Part shown: positions 29,599-50,076 of the stretch, piece after piece
Numbering within the stretch: position 1 is the first letter of the stretch
Layout of the letters: every line of letters starts with the position of its first letter
Assembly (NCBI RefSeq): GCF_000428525.1
Contig: NZ_AUAC01000003.1
Location: 620,001 to 684,000, forward strand
Source of the DNA: Hellea balneolensis DSM 19091
Lineage (GTDB): Bacteria > Pseudomonadota > Alphaproteobacteria > Caulobacterales > Maricaulaceae
Reading direction: 5' to 3'
DNA: 64,000 nt
Program-made: the position numbers and the translations under genes
The notes under the pieces: model-generated
What the model saw: only the letters and a program-made list of their open reading frames with translations
Told to the model about the DNA's origin: nothing
The model's database searches: none

Positions 29599-31194
29599 AT
29601 GATTAAGAAGATATTCGTCATACTCGCCGTCTTGCTGATTGCGGGATTTATCTTTGCCAAGGTGAAATTCAAGAAAGTGGCATCTTCGGATTTTGATTTC
29701 CCTACCGCCCAGACGGAAAACCTTGCATCGCTCATCAAGACCCGCCCCGCTGATGCCCCGCCGCCTAATGTTGTTATCCTTCTCGCTGATGATTTGGGCT
29801 GGGCAGATGTTGGCTATCATGGCAGTGATATTAAGACCCCTAATATTGACCGCTTGGCCAAAGAGGGCATGCAGCTTGACCGTTTCTATGCCACACCCTT
29901 TTGTACCCCGACTCGCGCAGCGCTGATGACCGCGCGTGACCCAATTAAGCTCGGCGCAGCTCATGCGGTCTTCATGGCCTGGGATAATGGCGGTATCTCG
30001 CCGACGGAACGCTTTATGCCTGAAGATTTTAAGGACGCAGGTTATCAAACTGCGATGATTGGCAAATGGCATTTGGGTCATACGATAGAACAGCACACGC
30101 CTAATGCGCGGGGATTTGATCATTTTTATGGTCACTTTAACACGGACGTTCTCTATTTCGACCACACCTTTGCAGGGGGTCACGACTTCCAAGAAAATGG
30201 CAAACCCGTTGATCATGATGGCGAATATGCTACCAATATTCACGGCAATGAGGCCAGCCGCTATATTGAGCAGATGCGCGACCCTGATAAGCCGTTCTTC
30301 CTTTATGTCCCGTTCCTAGCGCCGCATTCCCCAATGGAAGCCAAGGATGAAGATAAGGCCAAATATCCCGCGCGCCTCGACACGCCGCGTCACCCCGCCA
30401 AGACTTATGCCGCGATGGTCGATAGTATGGACCAAGCGATTGGCAGCATTTTGGACAGCCTCGACTCGAAAGGCGTAGCGGATAATACCATTGTGCTTTT
30501 CTTCTCTGATAATGGCGGGTTTTATAATTTTGGCGGCGTGAATAAACCTTTGCGCGGCGGTAAGCTCGAAGCCTATGAAGGCGGCGTGAGGGTGACGTCC
30601 GTCATACGCTGGCCTGACGTCTTGCCGGCCAATACCGTCAATGAAAACGTTATTTCCGTTATGGATGTCTATCCAACCTTAATGAAGGCCGCCGGCGTAA
30701 CGCCCAATTACAAAAAGAAAATCGACGGCATAGACCGCTGGGACGCGGTGACGGGAACAGGCGAGAAAGATCGCGGCGAGCCTCTGATTTTTACCTCTAA
30801 TGTGCCTATCTATAATGAGTTTAAATATGGCGTTCTGGACGGGCCTTGGAAGCTTGTCCAATATGTCAATCATGAACGCCGCACGACAGAGGTCAAAACG
30901 GAGCTGTTTAATGTCTGGACGGACCCGAATGAAGCCGAGGACATTTCAGCGGCTAACCCTGCGCAGGTGACTCGCCTGACGAAGATATTAGATAAGCGCC
31001 TCGCCCTGCATCCTATTGGCGGACAATATGTCAAAATCCAGCCTCACCCCGGATGGCGCGCGCCCAATGATTACGCCGATGTGGTTATCCCCGCAGACCA
31101 AGTCCTACCCGATATGTGGGACGGTTTCGGGCCTATGGCAACAGGGGTCTTGCAGCAGACGCATGGCGAAAAGGGCCGGATTAAGTACGATTAA
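29599..31194 (+). CDS. formylglycine-dependent sulfatase, membrane-anchored
   Basis: This is a 531-residue protein. An N-terminal hydrophobic segment (about 3-20) followed by lysines gives a membrane anchor or uncleaved signal. The sulfatase domain has metal-binding ILLADDLGWAD at 60-70, the modification motif Cys102-Thr-Pro-Thr-Arg whose cysteine becomes formylglycine, and GKWHLGHT near 155. DNGG occurs near 310. Type I sulfatases hydrolyse sulfate esters in the periplasm. Cysteine-type enzymes need a maturase, which is not encoded in this window. It is strongly similar to the sulfatase at 43414-44991, including the C-terminal HPGWRAP and GEKGRIKYD-like endings. Confidence 0.92.
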   Translation: MIKKIFVILAVLLIAGFIFAKVKFKKVASSDFDFPTAQTENLASLIKTRPADAPPPNVVILLADDLGWADVGYHGSDIKTPNIDRLAKEGMQLDRFYATPFCTPTRAALMTARDPIKLGAAHAVFMAWDNGGISPTERFMPEDFKDAGYQTAMIGKWHLGHTIEQHTPNARGFDHFYGHFNTDVLYFDHTFAGGHDFQENGKPVDHDGEYATNIHGNEASRYIEQMRDPDKPFFLYVPFLAPHSPMEAKDEDKAKYPARLDTPRHPAKTYAAMVDSMDQAIGSILDSLDSKGVADNTIVLFFSDNGGFYNFGGVNKPLRGGKLEAYEGGVRVTSVIRWPDVLPANTVNENVISVMDVYPTLMKAAGVTPNYKKKIDGIDRWDAVTGTGEKDRGEPLIFTSNVPIYNEFKYGVLDGPWKLVQYVNHERRTTEVKTELFNVWTDPNEAEDISAANPAQVTRLTKILDKRLALHPIGGQYVKIQPHPGWRAPNDYADVVIPADQVLPDMWDGFGPMATGVLQQTHGEKGRIKYD

Positions 31195-31762
31195 GCCAAG
31201 CGACATTCTTGGAGGACTTCGGCGGCAGAGTGCGAAGCCAGGGAACTATAGTCTGCCACCAAACCAATGCAGCTTGGGTTAGCGGGCGACAACCTGCCTT
31301 AAAAAAAGACAGCCCGCGTGGTCGGCATCCGCGATGGAATACCAAAATGAAAAATTGTTTTACGCAGTGCAAACCACGCGGCGATGATTTTTGTGTGAGG
31401 GCCTCTTAATCGCTGAGTTACCGTGGTACGATAGCTGTCGCTATCTGACGGCACAGCTTGGGCCTAACGCCTCACAAAGATCCGGCTCAATCGGAGTCGT
31501 AACTCTCCAATGCTCAATCTCATCGTCTCCCAAAACAGCAAGTGACGTCTTACCTGTCCAATTTCTGAGAAAACATATTAAAGCTCGAAACGGTTCCTTT
31601 CCATATATGCATTTTCGAAAACCGAAAATACACAGGTTCAGAGCCAATCCCTGAACTTCAACACCTATGACTATAGGGGCAAAGGGGAGAGCAAGGATTC
31701 ATCTCTGGATTTAGTTTGTAAGGATTTGAGTTTGCTAGTGTTTTAAGTTTGCAAATTGAGGA
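31195..31762. other. 568-base gap at edge of restriction-modification block, possible gene remnant
   Basis: No intact gene is convincing. On the minus strand 31647-31441 stays open for 68 codons without an ATG start, and the frame continues open further upstream to about 31700. It encodes a protein-like segment with KEPFRALICFLRNW and DDEIEHWRVTTPIEP, which could be the end of a decayed gene. CCGCGTGG (31314-31321) is mirrored by CCACGCGG (31374-31381). The composition shifts here toward the AT-rich restriction genes. Confidence 0.4.
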
Positions 31763-32626
31763 TTAAGTTGGGTTTCGTCGAATACGCGATAATATTTTAG
31801 CTTCAAAATCAGATTTTTTTGGTGGTTCTATATACATGTTCGCATTTTGTAAGGCGTTATGAGATGTTGCTTGCGTGTCCACAATTTTCAACTCGTATTG
31901 TTGTGTGATGTCGTTGAAAACATAATCATAAATTAAAAAAACCACGCTTGATTGTGGGTCGCCTATGTTTTTATCAGTTTTGAAACTGGCTTGGCTCTGA
32001 AAATAGTCATACATTGACTTTTGAACTAAAGCTACGATTCGAGAGCCCCAAATTTGGTGGTGATGTCCTTTATAAATCAGTTGAGATAGATAGCGTTTAG
32101 CAACATTTTTCCTATTAAAACCGAAGCTATAATTTCTCTGGCCTATTTTGTCTGAAGGAATCTCGCTTTTGATTTTGCCTTCAACATAGTCTGTAAAGAA
32201 GCCGGAAACACTACCAGTAATGTCAACAGCTTGTATTTCACAAGATACAAAGGCATCAACTCCACTTGTACTAACATCAGCAATAACAAAATCTATTGTG
32301 CCAAAACCTGACATTTGTACTTCATATGCTATTTTCGGATTCTTTGGTGCGGAACCCGGCCAGGCATGTTCTGTAATGTCTTTGATGAAATTTCTTGAAT
32401 AAAACCGTCTTGGACAGATGGTAACGACTTCATCGCTGGTCTTAGGTGATATTGAACACACCGGGTAGTGAGGCTGTGAAACTTTAACACTTTTCTTTAT
32501 GCAAGTGCTACCAGTAAACGGGCATGTGAAGTTTCCAAAGTCAGGTTTAACACCTGATATTGTCCGCTTTCCGAGGAGTTCAATTATGACCTCATTAGGA
32601 GCGAAAGTTTTAGACGGTTTCGTCAT
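31763..32626 (-). CDS. NotI-family type II restriction endonuclease
   Basis: This 287-residue protein has four N-terminal cysteines (Cys35, Cys42, Cys57, Cys71; CPFTGSTC, YPVCSI, TICPRRF), as in the iron-binding Cys4 site of NotI. The PD-(D/E)xK-type core has Glu102, Asp112 (GTIDFVIAD) and Glu130-x-Gln132 (CEIQAVD). NotI uses Asp160, Glu182 and Gln184, so the unusual E-x-Q is a strong family mark. It would cut double-stranded DNA at a specific site; recognition of GCGGCCGC is possible but unproven. The gene overlaps the methyltransferase stop by 17 bases and is markedly AT-rich compared with its neighbours. Confidence 0.85.
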   Translation of the reverse strand: MTKPSKTFAPNEVIIELLGKRTISGVKPDFGNFTCPFTGSTCIKKSVKVSQPHYPVCSISPKTSDEVVTICPRRFYSRNFIKDITEHAWPGSAPKNPKIAYEVQMSGFGTIDFVIADVSTSGVDAFVSCEIQAVDITGSVSGFFTDYVEGKIKSEIPSDKIGQRNYSFGFNRKNVAKRYLSQLIYKGHHHQIWGSRIVALVQKSMYDYFQSQASFKTDKNIGDPQSSVVFLIYDYVFNDITQQYELKIVDTQATSHNALQNANMYIEPPKKSDFEAKILSRIRRNPT

Positions 32627-33743
32627 TTAAAGCTGAGTTTTTAATACTGTTTATGGTTGGTAGGATCGTTTTAGCAATGGCCTTTCCAAGTATAGGTGGA
32701 ACTGCATTTCCAACTTGAACATATTGTTCTGTTTTATTTCCAAAAAATTCTACATGATCAGGAAAGCCTTGTATTCTGGCGGCCTCCCGAACAGTGATGG
32801 CTCTATCTTGTTCCGGATGAATATAGGCCCCCCAATGAATATCGCACTTAGTTAAAATCGTGCATGACATTCCATCCCATTTCATACGTCCATATCGTTT
32901 AGTATGATCAGAGCGTTTGGCGGATTTCATGCCATTTGGAAGTAAGTCATGAGGAATATCCCGCCAACTTCCGCCCGGTTTAATGAATTTCAACCTTTCG
33001 ATATTTACTGCGCCCAACTTTGGAGCATCGTGATTCGTAATTTTAAGAGAATTTTTTCTGATATTTCGTTGATAGTTTGATTTAGGTTTTTCCAAGTAAG
33101 TTCCGTCACATAATTTTTCTCCATTTTCTAATTCGGGAAGGTCAGAAATTGAATCAAAAATTGTGACAAAGTTTTCAGCTGTATGGGTTTTTTTAGGCCA
33201 ATGAATGGGTGCATTTATGCGGTTACCCAAGAATATGACTCTTCGCCTTTCTTGAGGTATTCCATAGTCCTCTGCGAATAGGGTTTTAACTTCGATTTCA
33301 TAACCACGGTCATTTAACTCTGTTCTGATAGTCTCGATTACCTGTCCATTATCTATTGATTTTATTCCTGTAACATTTTCGATGACAATCCATTTTGGAT
33401 AAAGCTCATCGACTATCCTCAAATATTCTTTGAAAAGGTTGGCGCGCTCGTCATCCATACTGCGTTTGTGATTATAGACGCTGTAAGCTTGGCATGGTGG
33501 GCCTCCTACGAGGCAGTCAAGGTCTCCGCGCTTCATCGACATATCAGACAATATATGATTGCCTTTCAACTCTTGAATTGGCATATCATAAAATTTCGAA
33601 TTTTCATGAGCATTGGAAAATGTTTGTCCGGCAGATTTGAAAAAATCATTACCTCCAAGCACTCTAAAGTCTGCTTGCTGGAAACCTAAAGACAGGCCTC
33701 CTGCGCCGCAAAATAAATCAAAAACTGTTGGTGCTTTGCCCAT
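32610..33743 (-). CDS. DNA (cytosine-5-)-methyltransferase
   Basis: This 377-residue protein shows the ordered motifs of C5-cytosine methyltransferases. Motif I is DLFCGAGGLSLGF at 9-21, motif IV GGPPCQAYS with catalytic Cys84, motif VI IVIENVTGI near 140, motif VIII QERRRVIFLGNR near 185 and motif X QVGNAVPPILGKAIA near 343. It transfers methyl from SAM to cytosine in the recognition site of the partner NotI-like nuclease, protecting host DNA. It is the first gene of the two-gene system. Codon use is AT-rich, suggesting recent acquisition. It is divergent from the DUF4345 gene. Confidence 0.95.
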   Translation of the reverse strand: MGKAPTVFDLFCGAGGLSLGFQQADFRVLGGNDFFKSAGQTFSNAHENSKFYDMPIQELKGNHILSDMSMKRGDLDCLVGGPPCQAYSVYNHKRSMDDERANLFKEYLRIVDELYPKWIVIENVTGIKSIDNGQVIETIRTELNDRGYEIEVKTLFAEDYGIPQERRRVIFLGNRINAPIHWPKKTHTAENFVTIFDSISDLPELENGEKLCDGTYLEKPKSNYQRNIRKNSLKITNHDAPKLGAVNIERLKFIKPGGSWRDIPHDLLPNGMKSAKRSDHTKRYGRMKWDGMSCTILTKCDIHWGAYIHPEQDRAITVREAARIQGFPDHVEFFGNKTEQYVQVGNAVPPILGKAIAKTILPTINSIKNSALNDETV

Positions 33744-33906
33744 GGGAATATCTATTTACTGATTCTCTGAACTTTCTATAAATTAGTTACAGAACGTATA
33801 GTGAACAAATTGCGAAGTGTCCACGTTTAATTGACCTAAGACAGGACAACATTGACACAACCCCATCACCCCCACATCATGCCTCCATAAAACATAGGGG
33901 AATATC

Positions 33907-34290
33907 ATGAATACATTAGCAAAAATCGCCGCCGCACTTGTTGGGCTTTTTTCACTTGCTATGGGGCTTTTGGCTTGGGTTGATCCTGCCAAAGTTGGGG
34001 AGATTGTTGGCTTGGTGGGGCCTGCTGAATTGGGGCAGCATACGCTGCGCGGTGATGTGGGCGCGGTCTTTTTGGCAAGTGCTCTTGGCTGCGGACTTGC
34101 GCTGTTTAAAGGCAAAGCTATAGGCTTGAAATTACCGATTATTATTTACGGGCTTGTTCTGCTGGGTCGCCTTATCAGCCTCGTTTTGACGGGGAACGGG
34201 CCCGGCGTAATGCAGCCTATTCTCATCGAAGTCGTTTTGATCGGCTTATCTGTCTTTGCGTATAAGACCCTTAAGAGCACTAAGGCCTAA
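33907..34290 (+). CDS. DUF4345-like small membrane protein
   Basis: This 127-residue protein has four hydrophobic segments (about 5-25, 48-68, 73-95 and 100-120). The pattern, including GDVGAVFLASALGCGLAL and a basic C-terminus, resembles DUF4345 inner-membrane proteins of unknown role. It is preceded by AGGGGAAT and stands alone on the plus strand between the restriction-modification pair and a convergent beta-propeller gene that ends 5 bases away. Composition is back to the host type. Confidence 0.65.
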   Translation: MNTLAKIAAALVGLFSLAMGLLAWVDPAKVGEIVGLVGPAELGQHTLRGDVGAVFLASALGCGLALFKGKAIGLKLPIIIYGLVLLGRLISLVLTGNGPGVMQPILIEVVLIGLSVFAYKTLKSTKA

Positions 34291-43413: not shown

Positions 43414-44991
43414 ATGAGAGGTTTTGTTGCAGCTCTTGGACTTGGGGCTTTTCTGCTCGGATGCCAAAATAGTTATGAGAGTGAAACTGTAAAATCGCCT
43501 GAACGCTTATCCCAAGCTGTAAAGGTTTCATCGCAGACCATAGAAGGCGCATACACGCAGCCCAATATTGTTATCCTTCTGGCAGATGATCTAGGTTGGG
43601 CTGACCTTGGCTTTCGCGGCAGTGATATTGAGACCCCGCATATTGATAGTCTTGCGCGAGATGGATTAACGCTAAACCGTTTCTATGCCATGCCGATATG
43701 CACCCCGACACGCAGTGCTTTAATGACGGCGCGTGATCCCATGAAAATGGGAACGGCCTATGCTGGGTTTCAGCCTTGGCAGAATGGCGGCGTGTCGCCG
43801 GATGAGCATTTTATGCCAGAGAGTTTCAAGGCCGCGGGTTATCAAACGGCCATGATTGGAAAATGGCACTTGGGCCATACGATAGAGCCGCTTGTCCCGA
43901 ATTCTCGCGGCTTTGATCATTTCTTTGGGCACTTAAATACGCAAATTGATTATTTCGATTACACCGTCGCGGGAGGCTATGACCTGCAAGAAAATGGCGT
44001 GTCCGTGAAACGTGAAGATCAATATATGACGGATATACATGGCGATGAAGCTGTGCGTTATATTGAAGAACTCCGTGATCCAGAAAAACCCTTCTTTCTA
44101 TATGTACCATTCCTCGCGCCGCATTCCCCCATGCAGGCCCCGGCAGAGCTTGAGGACAAATATAAGAAACGCCTGAACCGGCCTTTTCCGAAACGCACAT
44201 ATGCGGCGATGGTCGATAGTCTCGATCAAGCTGTAGGCCGCATTCTTGAAAGCTTGGACGCGCAAGGTTTGAGCGAAAATACGTTGGTGTTTTTCTTTTC
44301 CGATAATGGCGGGTTGAAAGCCTTTGGGGCCGATAACAGCCCTTATCGCGGTGGCAAGCTTGAGACTTTTGAGGGCGGCATACGCGTTAATGCGATTATG
44401 CGTTGGCCTGAGAAAATTGCATCAGGCACAACGACAGAAGATGTTATTTCGGTGATGGATGTCTTTCCGACTTTTGCCGATGCAGTTGGTATTGAGATGA
44501 AACATGAGAAGGCGTCAGACGGTCAAGACCGTTGGGAGGCGCTCATGAATTCAGGCGAAGACCCGCGAAATGGGGATTTATATTTTGCGTCCAACTCTCC
44601 CATATTCGATAAATACCATGTAAGTGTCATGGAACAGCGTTGGAAGCTTGTACAAATTATTGACCACAAATCGGCTTCGACTGAGGTCGAGAATTTCCTC
44701 TTTGATATCACGGCTGACCCAGAGGAAAAAAACAATCTGGCCAAAGATAATACCAAAGTGGTTGAGCGCATGGCCAAAAAGATACTCAAATGGCGGGCCC
44801 AGCATCCGATCAATGGTGTTCGCGTGGCTCTCGCCCCGCATCCTGGGTGGCGCGCCCCCAAAGATTATGCCGTATCTGTCATTCCTACTGAGGAGCTTCA
44901 AGAGGACTATTTGAATAGCTACACCTCAGGCATGCGCGGTAAAATCTTGCAAAAGCGTCATGGCGATAAAGGAAAGCTGGCCTATGACTAA
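43414..44991 (+). CDS. formylglycine-dependent sulfatase, lipoprotein
   Basis: This is a 525-residue protein. The start at 43414 is chosen because TAAGGA precedes it and because it yields a signal peptide ending in the lipobox LLGC with Cys17; the longer frame would begin inside the hairpin. Metal-binding ILLADDLGWAD is followed by Cys96-Thr-Pro-Thr-Arg, the formylglycine site, GKWHLGHT and FSDNGG. It is a close paralogue of the 29599 sulfatase but lipid-anchored instead of membrane-spanning. It likely desulfates the ligand imported by the neighbouring receptor (inference). The next gene starts 8 bases inside its end. Confidence 0.92.
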   Translation: MRGFVAALGLGAFLLGCQNSYESETVKSPERLSQAVKVSSQTIEGAYTQPNIVILLADDLGWADLGFRGSDIETPHIDSLARDGLTLNRFYAMPICTPTRSALMTARDPMKMGTAYAGFQPWQNGGVSPDEHFMPESFKAAGYQTAMIGKWHLGHTIEPLVPNSRGFDHFFGHLNTQIDYFDYTVAGGYDLQENGVSVKREDQYMTDIHGDEAVRYIEELRDPEKPFFLYVPFLAPHSPMQAPAELEDKYKKRLNRPFPKRTYAAMVDSLDQAVGRILESLDAQGLSENTLVFFFSDNGGLKAFGADNSPYRGGKLETFEGGIRVNAIMRWPEKIASGTTTEDVISVMDVFPTFADAVGIEMKHEKASDGQDRWEALMNSGEDPRNGDLYFASNSPIFDKYHVSVMEQRWKLVQIIDHKSASTEVENFLFDITADPEEKNNLAKDNTKVVERMAKKILKWRAQHPINGVRVALAPHPGWRAPKDYAVSVIPTEELQEDYLNSYTSGMRGKILQKRHGDKGKLAYD

Positions 44992-47661: not shown

Positions 47662-50076
47662 ATGACAGGTGTGTTAAGCGGTATCAAAGTTCTGGACCTT
47701 TCTTGGGGTATTGCTGGGCCTATGACGGGAATGCTATTGGCTGATCACGGCGCTGATGTAACCCGTATTGAGCGGCCGCAAGGCGACCCTTTCGGTGATT
47801 TACTAGGCTACAGAGTTTGGCATCGTGGTAAGAAAAACGCCGTTCTGGATTTTCATACCGTCGGGGATTTAGGCCTTTTCAAGAAACTTGCTGCGGATGC
47901 GGACGTTTTGATCGAATCTATGCGGCCAGGTAAAATGAAAGAATTTGGTCTCGATTATGACCAGCTAGCAAAGCTGAACCCCAAACTGATCTATTGCTCT
48001 ATTTCTGGCTATGGCGATGATGACGATCGCCCCGGATATGACGCTTTGGTCGCTGCCAGTTCCGGCTTGCAATTTGAGCAGCGCGGCTGGGCAGAAGGCG
48101 CGCTAAATCACATGGCGGGACGTGAAGACCCCTTTGCGGGCGCTGCCGAAATTGATCCGAACCATGTTCAAGGTGCCAACCGGGAAGGCCCGTTGCACGT
48201 GGCCTCAAAATGGCCAAGTATGGGAGCTTTCTTCTCTGCGATTACAGGTATTTCCGCCGCCCTATTTGCGCGGGAAAAAACAGGACGCGGTCAGAGGGTC
48301 ACAACATCTCTGCAACAAGGCGCAATGGCGTGCGGGTCCGGTGTCTGGCAACGCGCCGAAGATATTGATGCTCAAGGATTTAATACATGGATCATGGGCA
48401 GTGCGTCTCCCAAAGGGCATTTCAAATGCGCGGATGATAAATGGTTGCATAATTGGGTGCCTAATCCACGCTTTATCTTAGAAGCCTCTAAAGGCGATAC
48501 GCTTGATGCCTCGCCGGACCTGAGTGTTCAAAATGATCCCGACCGTTTTGGCATTGGCCCCGAAGAACTTTTGGTCATGGCGCATTATCAGCCTATTTTG
48601 GCTGATGCAGTGAAGAAATTTAAGTGTGATGACTGGGTCAAGGCTGCTGCAGATGGAAATATGACTATGCAGCCTTGCCGGAATATCGAAGAGAGCCTTA
48701 CAGACCCACTTCTCTTAAATGATAATTGCGTAGTAACTATCGATGACCCTGAGCTTGGGCCTATCAATCAAGTCGGGATTACCTACCGCCTAAGTAATAG
48801 CCAAGGCGCTATTCAAGGGCCGATGCGCGTAAGCGGCGCTGATACAGAGGCGGTGAAGGCTTATGCGGCCAGCCTTACCGATGCGCATGTTCAGAAAGCT
48901 CCGGCTCAACCAACGGGCAAAGGGCCGCTGGACGGTATTCGCGTTCTGGATCTAGGTCTCGCCATTGCTGGGCCATTTGGCTGTCAGCTCTTAGCCGATA
49001 TGGGAGCCGAAGTGATTAAAATGAATACACTTTGGGACAGTTATTGGCACCGTTGCCACATTGCTTACATGGCTAATCGTGGAAAGAAAAGTTTGGCGGT
49101 GATGCTCAAGCACCCCAAAGGTATGGAGGCGATTAAGAAAGTTATCGCGACCTGTGACGTGGTCCAGCATAATATGCGCTATCCCGCGACCCAAAGATTA
49201 GGCTTGGATTATGACAGCCTTAAAGAAGAATTTCCGCACCTGATTTATTGCCATTCCCGCGGTTTTGAAGAGGGGCCTAGAAAGAACCTCCCAGGGAATG
49301 ATCAAACAGGCGCCTGTCTTGCAGGGGTTCAGCATGAAGATGGCGCGCTCCATGCGGGCGGTGATACTCACCCTATGTGGTCATTGACGTCTTTGGGCGA
49401 TACCGGAAATGGCTTTCTGACAGCGGTCGGGATTTGCAATGCCCTGATGGAGCGCGAACGCACTGGTAAAGGGCAATTTGTGGATACATCAATCGTCAAT
49501 GCGTGCCTTTTAAATACAAGCTATGCCGTCGCAAAGCCCGACGGATCCGCTGTAGCACGAGAGCGCCTCAATGCCGACCAAACAGGTTATGGTGATTATT
49601 ACCGTCTCTACGAGTGCAGTGATGGTGTATGGATTCAAGTCGCAGCTATAAGTGAAGCACACAAAGCAGCACTAGATGAAGTGGCGGGTCAGGATAAGAT
49701 CGCGAGTTTCAAAGCGGCGACAAGCGATGTGCAAATGAAAGTCCTTGCAGATGCGACTATCCCTGCCGCAATTTCAGATGCCGAAGCCTCGCGCCGTCTC
49801 TTTGATAATGAAGACTATAAGGCGAAGGGCTGGACGGCTGAATATCATCACCCATATGTGGGTAAGCTTGAGCAAATCGGGCTGACTTATAATCTGTCTG
49901 ATACGCCGGGCGTTATCGGGACAGCTCCTTTAATCGTCGGAGATTGCACCAAGGCCATTCTTGAAGAGATCGGTTATTCAGAGGAAGAGATTTTGGCGAT
50001 GGCGAATGAAACGGCGATACTCTGCGATCCACCTTTGCCCGGGCAAAAAGAGATGAAGAACCCGTGGGGCTTGTAG
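47662..50076 (+). CDS. two-domain family III CoA-transferase (CaiB/BaiF) fusion
   Basis: This is an 804-residue tandem fusion. Copy 1 (about 1-400) starts VLDLSWGIAGPMTGMLLADHGADV and copy 2 (about 415-804) VLDLGLAIAGPFGCQLLADMGAEV. Copy 2 keeps the catalytic aspartate, Asp580 in SLGDTGNG. At the aligned place copy 1 reads KWPSMGAFF with Ser instead, and so probably cannot form the aspartyl-CoA anhydride. Single-domain family members act as interlocked dimers, so the fusion could be a built-in heterodimer with one active site (inference). It heads a seven-gene operon behind operator copy 2. The CoA donor and acceptor are unknown. Confidence 0.87.
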   Translation: MTGVLSGIKVLDLSWGIAGPMTGMLLADHGADVTRIERPQGDPFGDLLGYRVWHRGKKNAVLDFHTVGDLGLFKKLAADADVLIESMRPGKMKEFGLDYDQLAKLNPKLIYCSISGYGDDDDRPGYDALVAASSGLQFEQRGWAEGALNHMAGREDPFAGAAEIDPNHVQGANREGPLHVASKWPSMGAFFSAITGISAALFAREKTGRGQRVTTSLQQGAMACGSGVWQRAEDIDAQGFNTWIMGSASPKGHFKCADDKWLHNWVPNPRFILEASKGDTLDASPDLSVQNDPDRFGIGPEELLVMAHYQPILADAVKKFKCDDWVKAAADGNMTMQPCRNIEESLTDPLLLNDNCVVTIDDPELGPINQVGITYRLSNSQGAIQGPMRVSGADTEAVKAYAASLTDAHVQKAPAQPTGKGPLDGIRVLDLGLAIAGPFGCQLLADMGAEVIKMNTLWDSYWHRCHIAYMANRGKKSLAVMLKHPKGMEAIKKVIATCDVVQHNMRYPATQRLGLDYDSLKEEFPHLIYCHSRGFEEGPRKNLPGNDQTGACLAGVQHEDGALHAGGDTHPMWSLTSLGDTGNGFLTAVGICNALMERERTGKGQFVDTSIVNACLLNTSYAVAKPDGSAVARERLNADQTGYGDYYRLYECSDGVWIQVAAISEAHKAALDEVAGQDKIASFKAATSDVQMKVLADATIPAAISDAEASRRLFDNEDYKAKGWTAEYHHPYVGKLEQIGLTYNLSDTPGVIGTAPLIVGDCTKAILEEIGYSEEEILAMANETAILCDPPLPGQKEMKNPWGL

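What the first reader, a model, noticed from the sequence alone, without database searches (positions are those of the whole stretch)
31195..33906. AT-rich NotI-like restriction-modification module inserted in the catabolic locus
The endonuclease has the NotI-type Cys4 site and E-x-Q catalytic variant, and the methyltransferase overlaps it by 17 bases. Both are visibly richer in AT than the flanking genes. NotI homologues are uncommon. GCGGCCGC occurs at 47772 and 54863 in this window, about what chance predicts, so there is no sign of site avoidance; this fits recent acquisition, full methylation or another specificity.
Basis: partly seen in the sequence, partly recalled or inferred. Interest (0 to 1): 0.55.

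Follow-up and report, generated by a model that had tools for sequence, protein, structure and literature searches.

The report
Chimeric NotI-like module beside structured repeat
A bacterium carries a NotI-like DNA-cutting enzyme with its protecting methylase, inserted next to a folded repeat that is scattered over its relatives' genomes and often has foreign, defence-like genes on one side, so the repeat may mark where such genes come and go.

Summary
On the minus strand a C5 methyltransferase (32610-33743) overlaps by 17 bp a NotI-family endonuclease (31763-32626): Pfam NotI E=1.9e-9, predicted fold matching NotI at Z=18.5, Cys4 and E-x-Q conserved. GC is 38.9% against 48.2±2.5% in a genome sample. 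None of nine other genus genomes searched has it. The family is thin but widespread (13 of 398 phylum genomes). The target site is unknown; GCGGCCGC should not be assumed. Methyltransferase and endonuclease trees conflict (AU p=7e-9), so partners were exchanged.

The newer part is the setting. 31308-31559 is a covarying, dispersed repeat (matches in 21 of 136 family genomes). In 30 loci examined, the first gene on its 3' side is AT-rich (GC ≤0.44) in 19, on the 5' side in 0, against 79 of 745 background genes. Such genes include another type II RM. In the closest relative a KAP NTPase fills exactly this slot, and the sister methyltransferase in another genus also lies 3' of a repeat copy. I read the module as exchangeable cargo at a structured-repeat hot spot. 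No mobilising enzyme or far end was found, so incidental adjacency is not excluded.

The parts
31763..32626 (-). NotI-family restriction endonuclease, 287 aa
   Evidence: Pfam PF12183 E=1.9e-9; PDB profile hit NotI 3bvq E=7e-6; model pLDDT 86.5, Z=18.5 to 3c25; Cys4, E102, D112, E130-x-Q132
32610..33743 (-). C5 cytosine DNA methyltransferase, 377 aa, first gene of the pair
   Evidence: Pfam PF00145 E=1.7e-69; same gene order as in 28 of 30 nearest endonuclease loci
31778..33853 (.). extent of the replaced segment (cargo), from the end and the return of homology to G005
   Evidence: the left junction falls within the last codons of the endonuclease
31308..31559 (+). core of the dispersed structured repeat
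   Evidence: profile match 31308-31559 E=1.6e-74; covariation
31195..31307 (+). 5' flanking module of the repeat, partly shared with G005 and another copy in this genome
31560..31777 (+). 3' flanking module of the repeat with GGATT boxes
29599..31194 (+). sulfatase, left neighbour, conserved in relatives
   Evidence: PF00884 E=5.7e-63; present in 7 of 10 genus genomes at E<=1e-100, paralogues included
33907..34290 (+). DUF4345 gene, right neighbour; in G005 only its start region is left and another gene stands there
   Evidence: PF14248 E=1.6e-8

Best explanation
A type II restriction-modification system of the NotI family, carried as cargo. The C5 methyltransferase marks a cytosine in an unknown, probably palindromic site; the endonuclease cuts unmarked DNA there with a PD-(D/E)xK-type centre (D112, E130-x-Q132), with an N-terminal Cys4 metal site. 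It sits in the chromosome as a segment of about 2.1 kb directly 3' of a structured dispersed repeat, in a slot whose cargo differs between species. Shown: family, fold, key residues, gene order, foreign composition, absence in the relatives searched, a different cargo in the same slot, partner exchange, and the one-sided link of the repeat with AT-rich genes. Inferred: that the system is active, that the metal is iron as in NotI, that the repeat takes part in cargo exchange, and how.
For: NotI membership. Pairing with C5 methyltransferase in 28 of 30 nearest loci. Foreign composition. Slot: G005 has a KAP NTPase there; G006 and G001 have nothing. Repeat is structured: 75 compensatory cells against 26.8±3.8 shuffled. 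First 3' gene GC<=0.44 in 19 of 30 loci, first 5' gene 0 of 30, background 79 of 745. Same neighbours with different 3' genes at three places. Sister methyltransferase in G051 also 3' of a copy.
Against: 11 of 30 repeat loci have no AT-rich 3' gene, and in 6 of 30 the 3' gene is not poorer in GC than the 5' gene. Four NotI-type RMs of other genera of the family have no repeat nearby. No conserved far end and no 34-bp motif at this module's edges. In the window the endonuclease end faces the repeat, in G051 the methyltransferase start does. The loci were chosen by repeat match in five genomes, not as a census.
Confidence: 0.72

Rival explanations
1. An ordinary horizontally acquired NotI-type RM that landed by illegitimate recombination next to a common intergenic repeat; the repeat has no part in it.
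For: The repeat is frequent (53 BLAST pieces in G009). Close relatives of the RM live on plasmids and near transposition genes without this repeat, and four RMs of the family lack it.
Against: The one-sided cargo bias (19 of 30 against 0 of 30), the swap of cargo at the same slot in G005 and the second RM of the same methyltransferase lineage beside a copy in G051.
Confidence: 0.22
2. The pair is decayed: the endonuclease end was made by the insertion junction and the enzyme no longer cuts, leaving at most an orphan methyltransferase.
For: The last codons of the endonuclease lie in DNA shared with G005. No site avoidance.
Against: Both frames are intact, the family-invariant residues are present, the length is near that of relatives (mostly 268-320 aa), the model is confident near the C-terminus (last full block pLDDT 90).
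Confidence: 0.15
3. The system recognises GCGGCCGC, as NotI does.
For: Same family and fold. Among solved methyltransferases the nearest bacterial one is M.HaeIII (its GGCC site and the GGCC core of NotI are recalled).
Against: Only 16% identity to NotI; family members pair with other kinds of methyltransferase; no avoidance, 12 observed against 12.2 expected, although a fully methylated site need not be avoided.
Confidence: 0.12

Closest known systems
NotI restriction endonuclease (PF12183; PDB 3bvq, 3c25)
   Same: Fold over 257 residues, Cys4 site, D and E-x-Q catalytic residues
   Different: 287 aa against 383; 16% identity; partner is a C5 methyltransferase overlapping the gene; site unknown
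NotI-family RM of Sphingobium plasmids (NZ_CP010960, NC_016000)
   Same: C5 methyltransferase then endonuclease, short overlap; endonuclease 40% and methyltransferase 57% identical
   Different: On a plasmid; methyltransferase of another branch than the window's
NotI-family RM of G051 (same family, other genus)
   Same: Sister methyltransferase, 64% identical; also 3' of the repeat
   Different: Endonuclease only 24% identical and of another clade; other chromosomal place; opposite orientation to the repeat
Mobile insertion cassettes / MITEs and integron cassettes
   Same: Short non-autonomous units that bring one or two accessory genes next to folded non-coding DNA (comparison from general knowledge; PMC5444012 seen in a listing only)
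   Different: A long covarying element on one side only; no array seen; cargo genes in either orientation; no conserved far end at this locus

Membership tests
NotI endonuclease family (PF12183) | Match to the family model above its cut-off | tested here: met
   37.7 bits, cut-off 22
NotI endonuclease family (PF12183) | NotI fold | tested here: met
   Z=18.5, rmsd 4.3, 257 residues aligned to 3c25; Foldseek E=2.1e-8 to 3bvq
NotI endonuclease family (PF12183) | Cys4 metal site and D ... E-x-Q centre | tested here: met
   Residues conserved in 22 members; Fe2+ Cys4 and Q for K in NotI stated in PMC4081073 (passages)
NotI endonuclease family (PF12183) | Bound metal and DNA cleavage | not testable with these tools
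   Needs protein
NotI as isoschizomer (GCGGCCGC) | Same recognition site | tested here: inconclusive
   No avoidance of the site; no palindrome specifically depleted against G009 and G044
Type II RM system | Endonuclease with cognate methyltransferase | tested here: met
   Overlapping genes, PF00145 E=1.7e-69; same order in 28 of 30 nearest loci
Rfam family (for the repeat) | Match above a gathering score | tested here: not met
   None at E<=1 over 7 kb; best E=0.15 in the strip, far below its gathering score
Integron cassette | Cargo gene in fixed orientation to its attachment site, arrays | tested here: not met
   First 3' genes lie on both strands; usually one cargo gene, no array seen
IscB omega-RNA | IscB-type RRXRR protein in the genome | tested here: inconclusive
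   0 of 6 genomes, but the family rang in no control either
Retroelement with its own reverse transcriptase | RVT_1 protein in repeat-rich genomes | tested here: not met
   None in G000 or G009; matches in 2 of 6 genomes (G005, G051)
MITE / mobile insertion cassette | Terminal inverted repeats at both ends of the cargo unit and target duplication | not tested
   The core alone has 6-bp complementary ends; duplications were not examined

The most novel reading that the evidence does not exclude
The structured repeat is the fixed part of an undescribed gene-capture system of this bacterial family: a covarying core of about 250-310 nt with 5' and 3' modules stays at chromosomal places and exchanges AT-rich, often defence-type cargo on its 3' side. 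Some cargoes are bounded by 34-bp imperfect palindromes (about GAGYGGCTTATTTTGGGCGATTTTAGGACRCTC), perhaps the recombination sites. The NotI module is one such cargo.
Probability: 0.3. Interest if true: 0.85.

Novelty: new variant of a known kind. Interest (0 to 1): 0.58.

Why it matters
The RM shows partner exchange: sister methyltransferases serve endonucleases only 24% alike, which makes it directly testable whether such different NotI-family enzymes read the same site. The setting matters more. A covarying non-coding element with one-sided turnover of foreign genes, among them two unrelated kinds of type II RM, a KAP NTPase that PADLOC lists as a candidate defence protein and a RES-domain protein, would be a new guide to defence genes and a mobile unit still to be explained.

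Tried and rejected
Recognition site: no avoidance of GCGGCCGC. Of 62 palindromic hexamers compared with G009, the most depleted here is GCGCGC, z=-2.8, not significant after 62 tests. No site was inferred.

Repeat as a known RNA: nothing in Rfam at E<=1 over 7 kb; three matches to E=10 in the 321-bp strip, all far below gathering scores. Reverse transcriptase and IscB ideas. Integron idea: 15 tyrosine-recombinase-like places in this genome; I did not examine their surroundings, and cargo orientation does not fit.

The 34-bp motif: 16 sites at E<0.02 in 1.2 Mb, all 157-3118 bp 3' of a repeat copy, but seven of them (five loci) seeded the model and it was retrained on its hits. A matrix made from it scores 16 bits or more at 14 sites in 9 of 30 loci on the 3' side and nowhere on the 5' side, where the best is 9.5. 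Less biased: in 400 kb of G009 and G044 taken without regard to the repeat, the seed model finds 2 sites at E<=1, both beside a repeat copy, around two small ORFs. Against exclusivity, one G009 locus has the motif around a gene with the nearest repeat about 6.7 kb away. It is not at the NotI module's edges.

Conserved far end of the cargo: pieces right of the cargo from ten loci (this one and nine others) gave no common sequence beyond the 34-bp motif.

Papers: ten searches; of these, bear on the repeat, and none of their listings showed it, in a library that holds only open-licence papers. 'NotI family' with 'restriction endonuclease' gave 0 papers. Passages only were read in PMC7720504 and PMC4081073; all others were seen as listings.

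Rows dropped: L143, L145 and L049 from the clade test as long branches; L145 from the endonuclease tree; near-duplicates before the trees. L034 fell out by the end filter; L115 had no right gene.

Full report
1. The module. Two minus-strand genes overlap by 17 bp: a C5 methyltransferase (32610-33743) and an endonuclease (31763-32626). The endonuclease matches Pfam NotI at E=1.9e-9. A single-sequence PDB search missed NotI; a profile of five relatives finds it at E=7e-6. A model built on 22 aligned family members (pLDDT 86.5) has NotI chains as its only matches at E<=0.001 (Foldseek E=2.1e-8) and as top rows of the second look (Z=18.5, rmsd 4.3, 257 residues; next Z=8.1). C35, C57, C71, E102, D112, E130 and Q132 are invariant in the 22, C42 nearly so. 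For NotI itself an Fe2+ Cys4 site and Q in place of K are stated in PMC4081073 (passages).

2. Distribution. By the protein: 6 of 137 genomes of the taxonomic family and 4 of 385 of the class; by the Pfam model: 13 of 398 of the phylum, 0 of 14 control genomes; own genome included in each. 7 of 72,556 plasmid records and 0 of 50,697 phage records match the endonuclease. In one-genome-per-species data 91 relatives were found and 80 kept; a first scan with the single protein had found none. Of the 30 loci nearest to this endonuclease (L116-L145), 28 have a related C5 methyltransferase upstream in the same order, some cut by contig ends; of 49 more distant ones (L147-L195) none has one within 1.5 kb. 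Of 88 plasmid records that match the methyltransferase at E<=1e-40 I opened four, and in all four a NotI-family gene follows: Sphingobium, Sedimenticola, Klebsiella pGES-GZ beside transposition genes, Roseivivax. In phage vB_Pae_U8, the one opened of 24 phage records, the next gene is annotated hypothetical and aligns with the family.

3. Partner exchange. The window's methyltransferase is sister to that of G051 (64% identity, support 100/100), but the two endonucleases are 24% identical and fall in different clades. Holding the 21 methyltransferases that serve the window's endonuclease clade together is rejected (p=7e-9). The endonuclease tree is a quick one with long branches; the placement of the window's endonuclease also rests on 36-41% identity to its clade against 21-26% to others.

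4. Insertion. GC is 38.9%; 0 of 740 equal-length segments outside the window are as low. In G006 and G001 the matches to the sulfatase and to the next conserved gene (aldehyde-dehydrogenase-like by eye) end 59 bp apart; in the window 4.8 kb apart. In the closest relative G005 (sulfatase 97% identical) the slot holds a KAP NTPase (PF07693 E=1.2e-14; PADLOC PDC-S49 E=8e-146). Homology between window and G005 ends near 31777 and returns at 33854, so the segment is about 2.08 kb here and 2.03 kb in G005. The DUF4345 gene is also replaced in G005, so this stretch turns over more than once.

5. The strip on the left is a dispersed repeat: matches in 6 of 10 genus genomes with 53 pieces in G009, and in 21 of 136 genomes of the family. 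24 full-length copies with sharp ends were gathered. In 22 aligned copies 30 proposed pairs are 85.1% paired (31-47% when slid), with 75 compensatory cells against 26.8±3.8 shuffled; in the long hairpin 8 of 12 pairs change on both sides. I drew the structure from these sequences, which favours it over the slid versions, and the measure 'further pair types' does not exceed the shuffles; nine pairs of the long hairpin and the terminal stem were also predicted without me. Two or more GGATT boxes follow within 260 bp in 17 of 31 copies, 0 of 31 on the 5' side.

6. What lies beside it. In 30 loci of five genomes (16 in G009, 5 in G044, 4 in G005, 3 in G002, 2 in the own genome) the first 3' gene has GC<=0.44 in 19 and the first 5' gene in 0; background 79 of 745 genes, Fisher p=3e-11; the 3' gene is poorer in GC than the 5' gene in 24 of 30, Wilcoxon p=3e-5. 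Genes were picked mechanically and loci by repeat match, so this is no census, and 11 of 30 have no AT-rich 3' gene. 3' genes include an MvaI/BcnI-type endonuclease with a C5 methyltransferase, a RES-domain protein, a phosphorylase-domain protein, DUF4747 and TPR proteins; several have no Pfam match. The 5' genes look like core functions by eye (recalled, not run). Copies beside the same gene carry different 3' genes at three places: the sulfatase (window, G005, G009), a thiC-like gene (G009, G002; distance to the repeat about 900 and 79 bp) and a symporter (G044, G051). One G009 copy with its cargo has an empty counterpart in this genome. The G051 RM lies 3' of a copy; four further RMs of the family have none nearby.

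7. A 34-bp imperfect palindrome flanks some cargoes. It is absent from this module's edges and occurs at one place away from a repeat. I treat it as a lead.

8. Verdict. The RM is a new, chimeric member of a known family. Its setting, a structured-repeat slot with changing one-sided cargo, is the interesting part. It rests on statistics and three compared places; no enzyme or mechanism is known.

Noticed in passing
window 31308-31559; copies in G009, G005, G002, G008, G044, G051: Dispersed structured repeat of about 250-310 bp with mosaic flanking hairpins, no Rfam match, AT-rich genes mostly on its 3' side.
   Followed up: partly
L087, L092, L108, L111, L035, L209, L034, L098, L101, L113; also L231 7422-8702: 34-bp imperfect palindrome flanking single genes, mostly 3' of the repeat; once without a repeat nearby.
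   Followed up: partly
window 43556-44474: A second sulfatase-like stretch, about 69% identical in DNA to the sulfatase at 29599-31194.
   Followed up: no
L054 1486-2787: One frame in which the first 190 aa of a C5 methyltransferase run into a NotI-family endonuclease: a deletion fusion or relic.
   Followed up: no
L061 (Klebsiella plasmid pGES-GZ): NotI-family RM between transposition genes and IS1071.
   Followed up: no
L086 2521-4550: A different type II RM (MvaI/BcnI-type endonuclease with C5 methyltransferase) directly 3' of a repeat copy in G009.
   Followed up: partly
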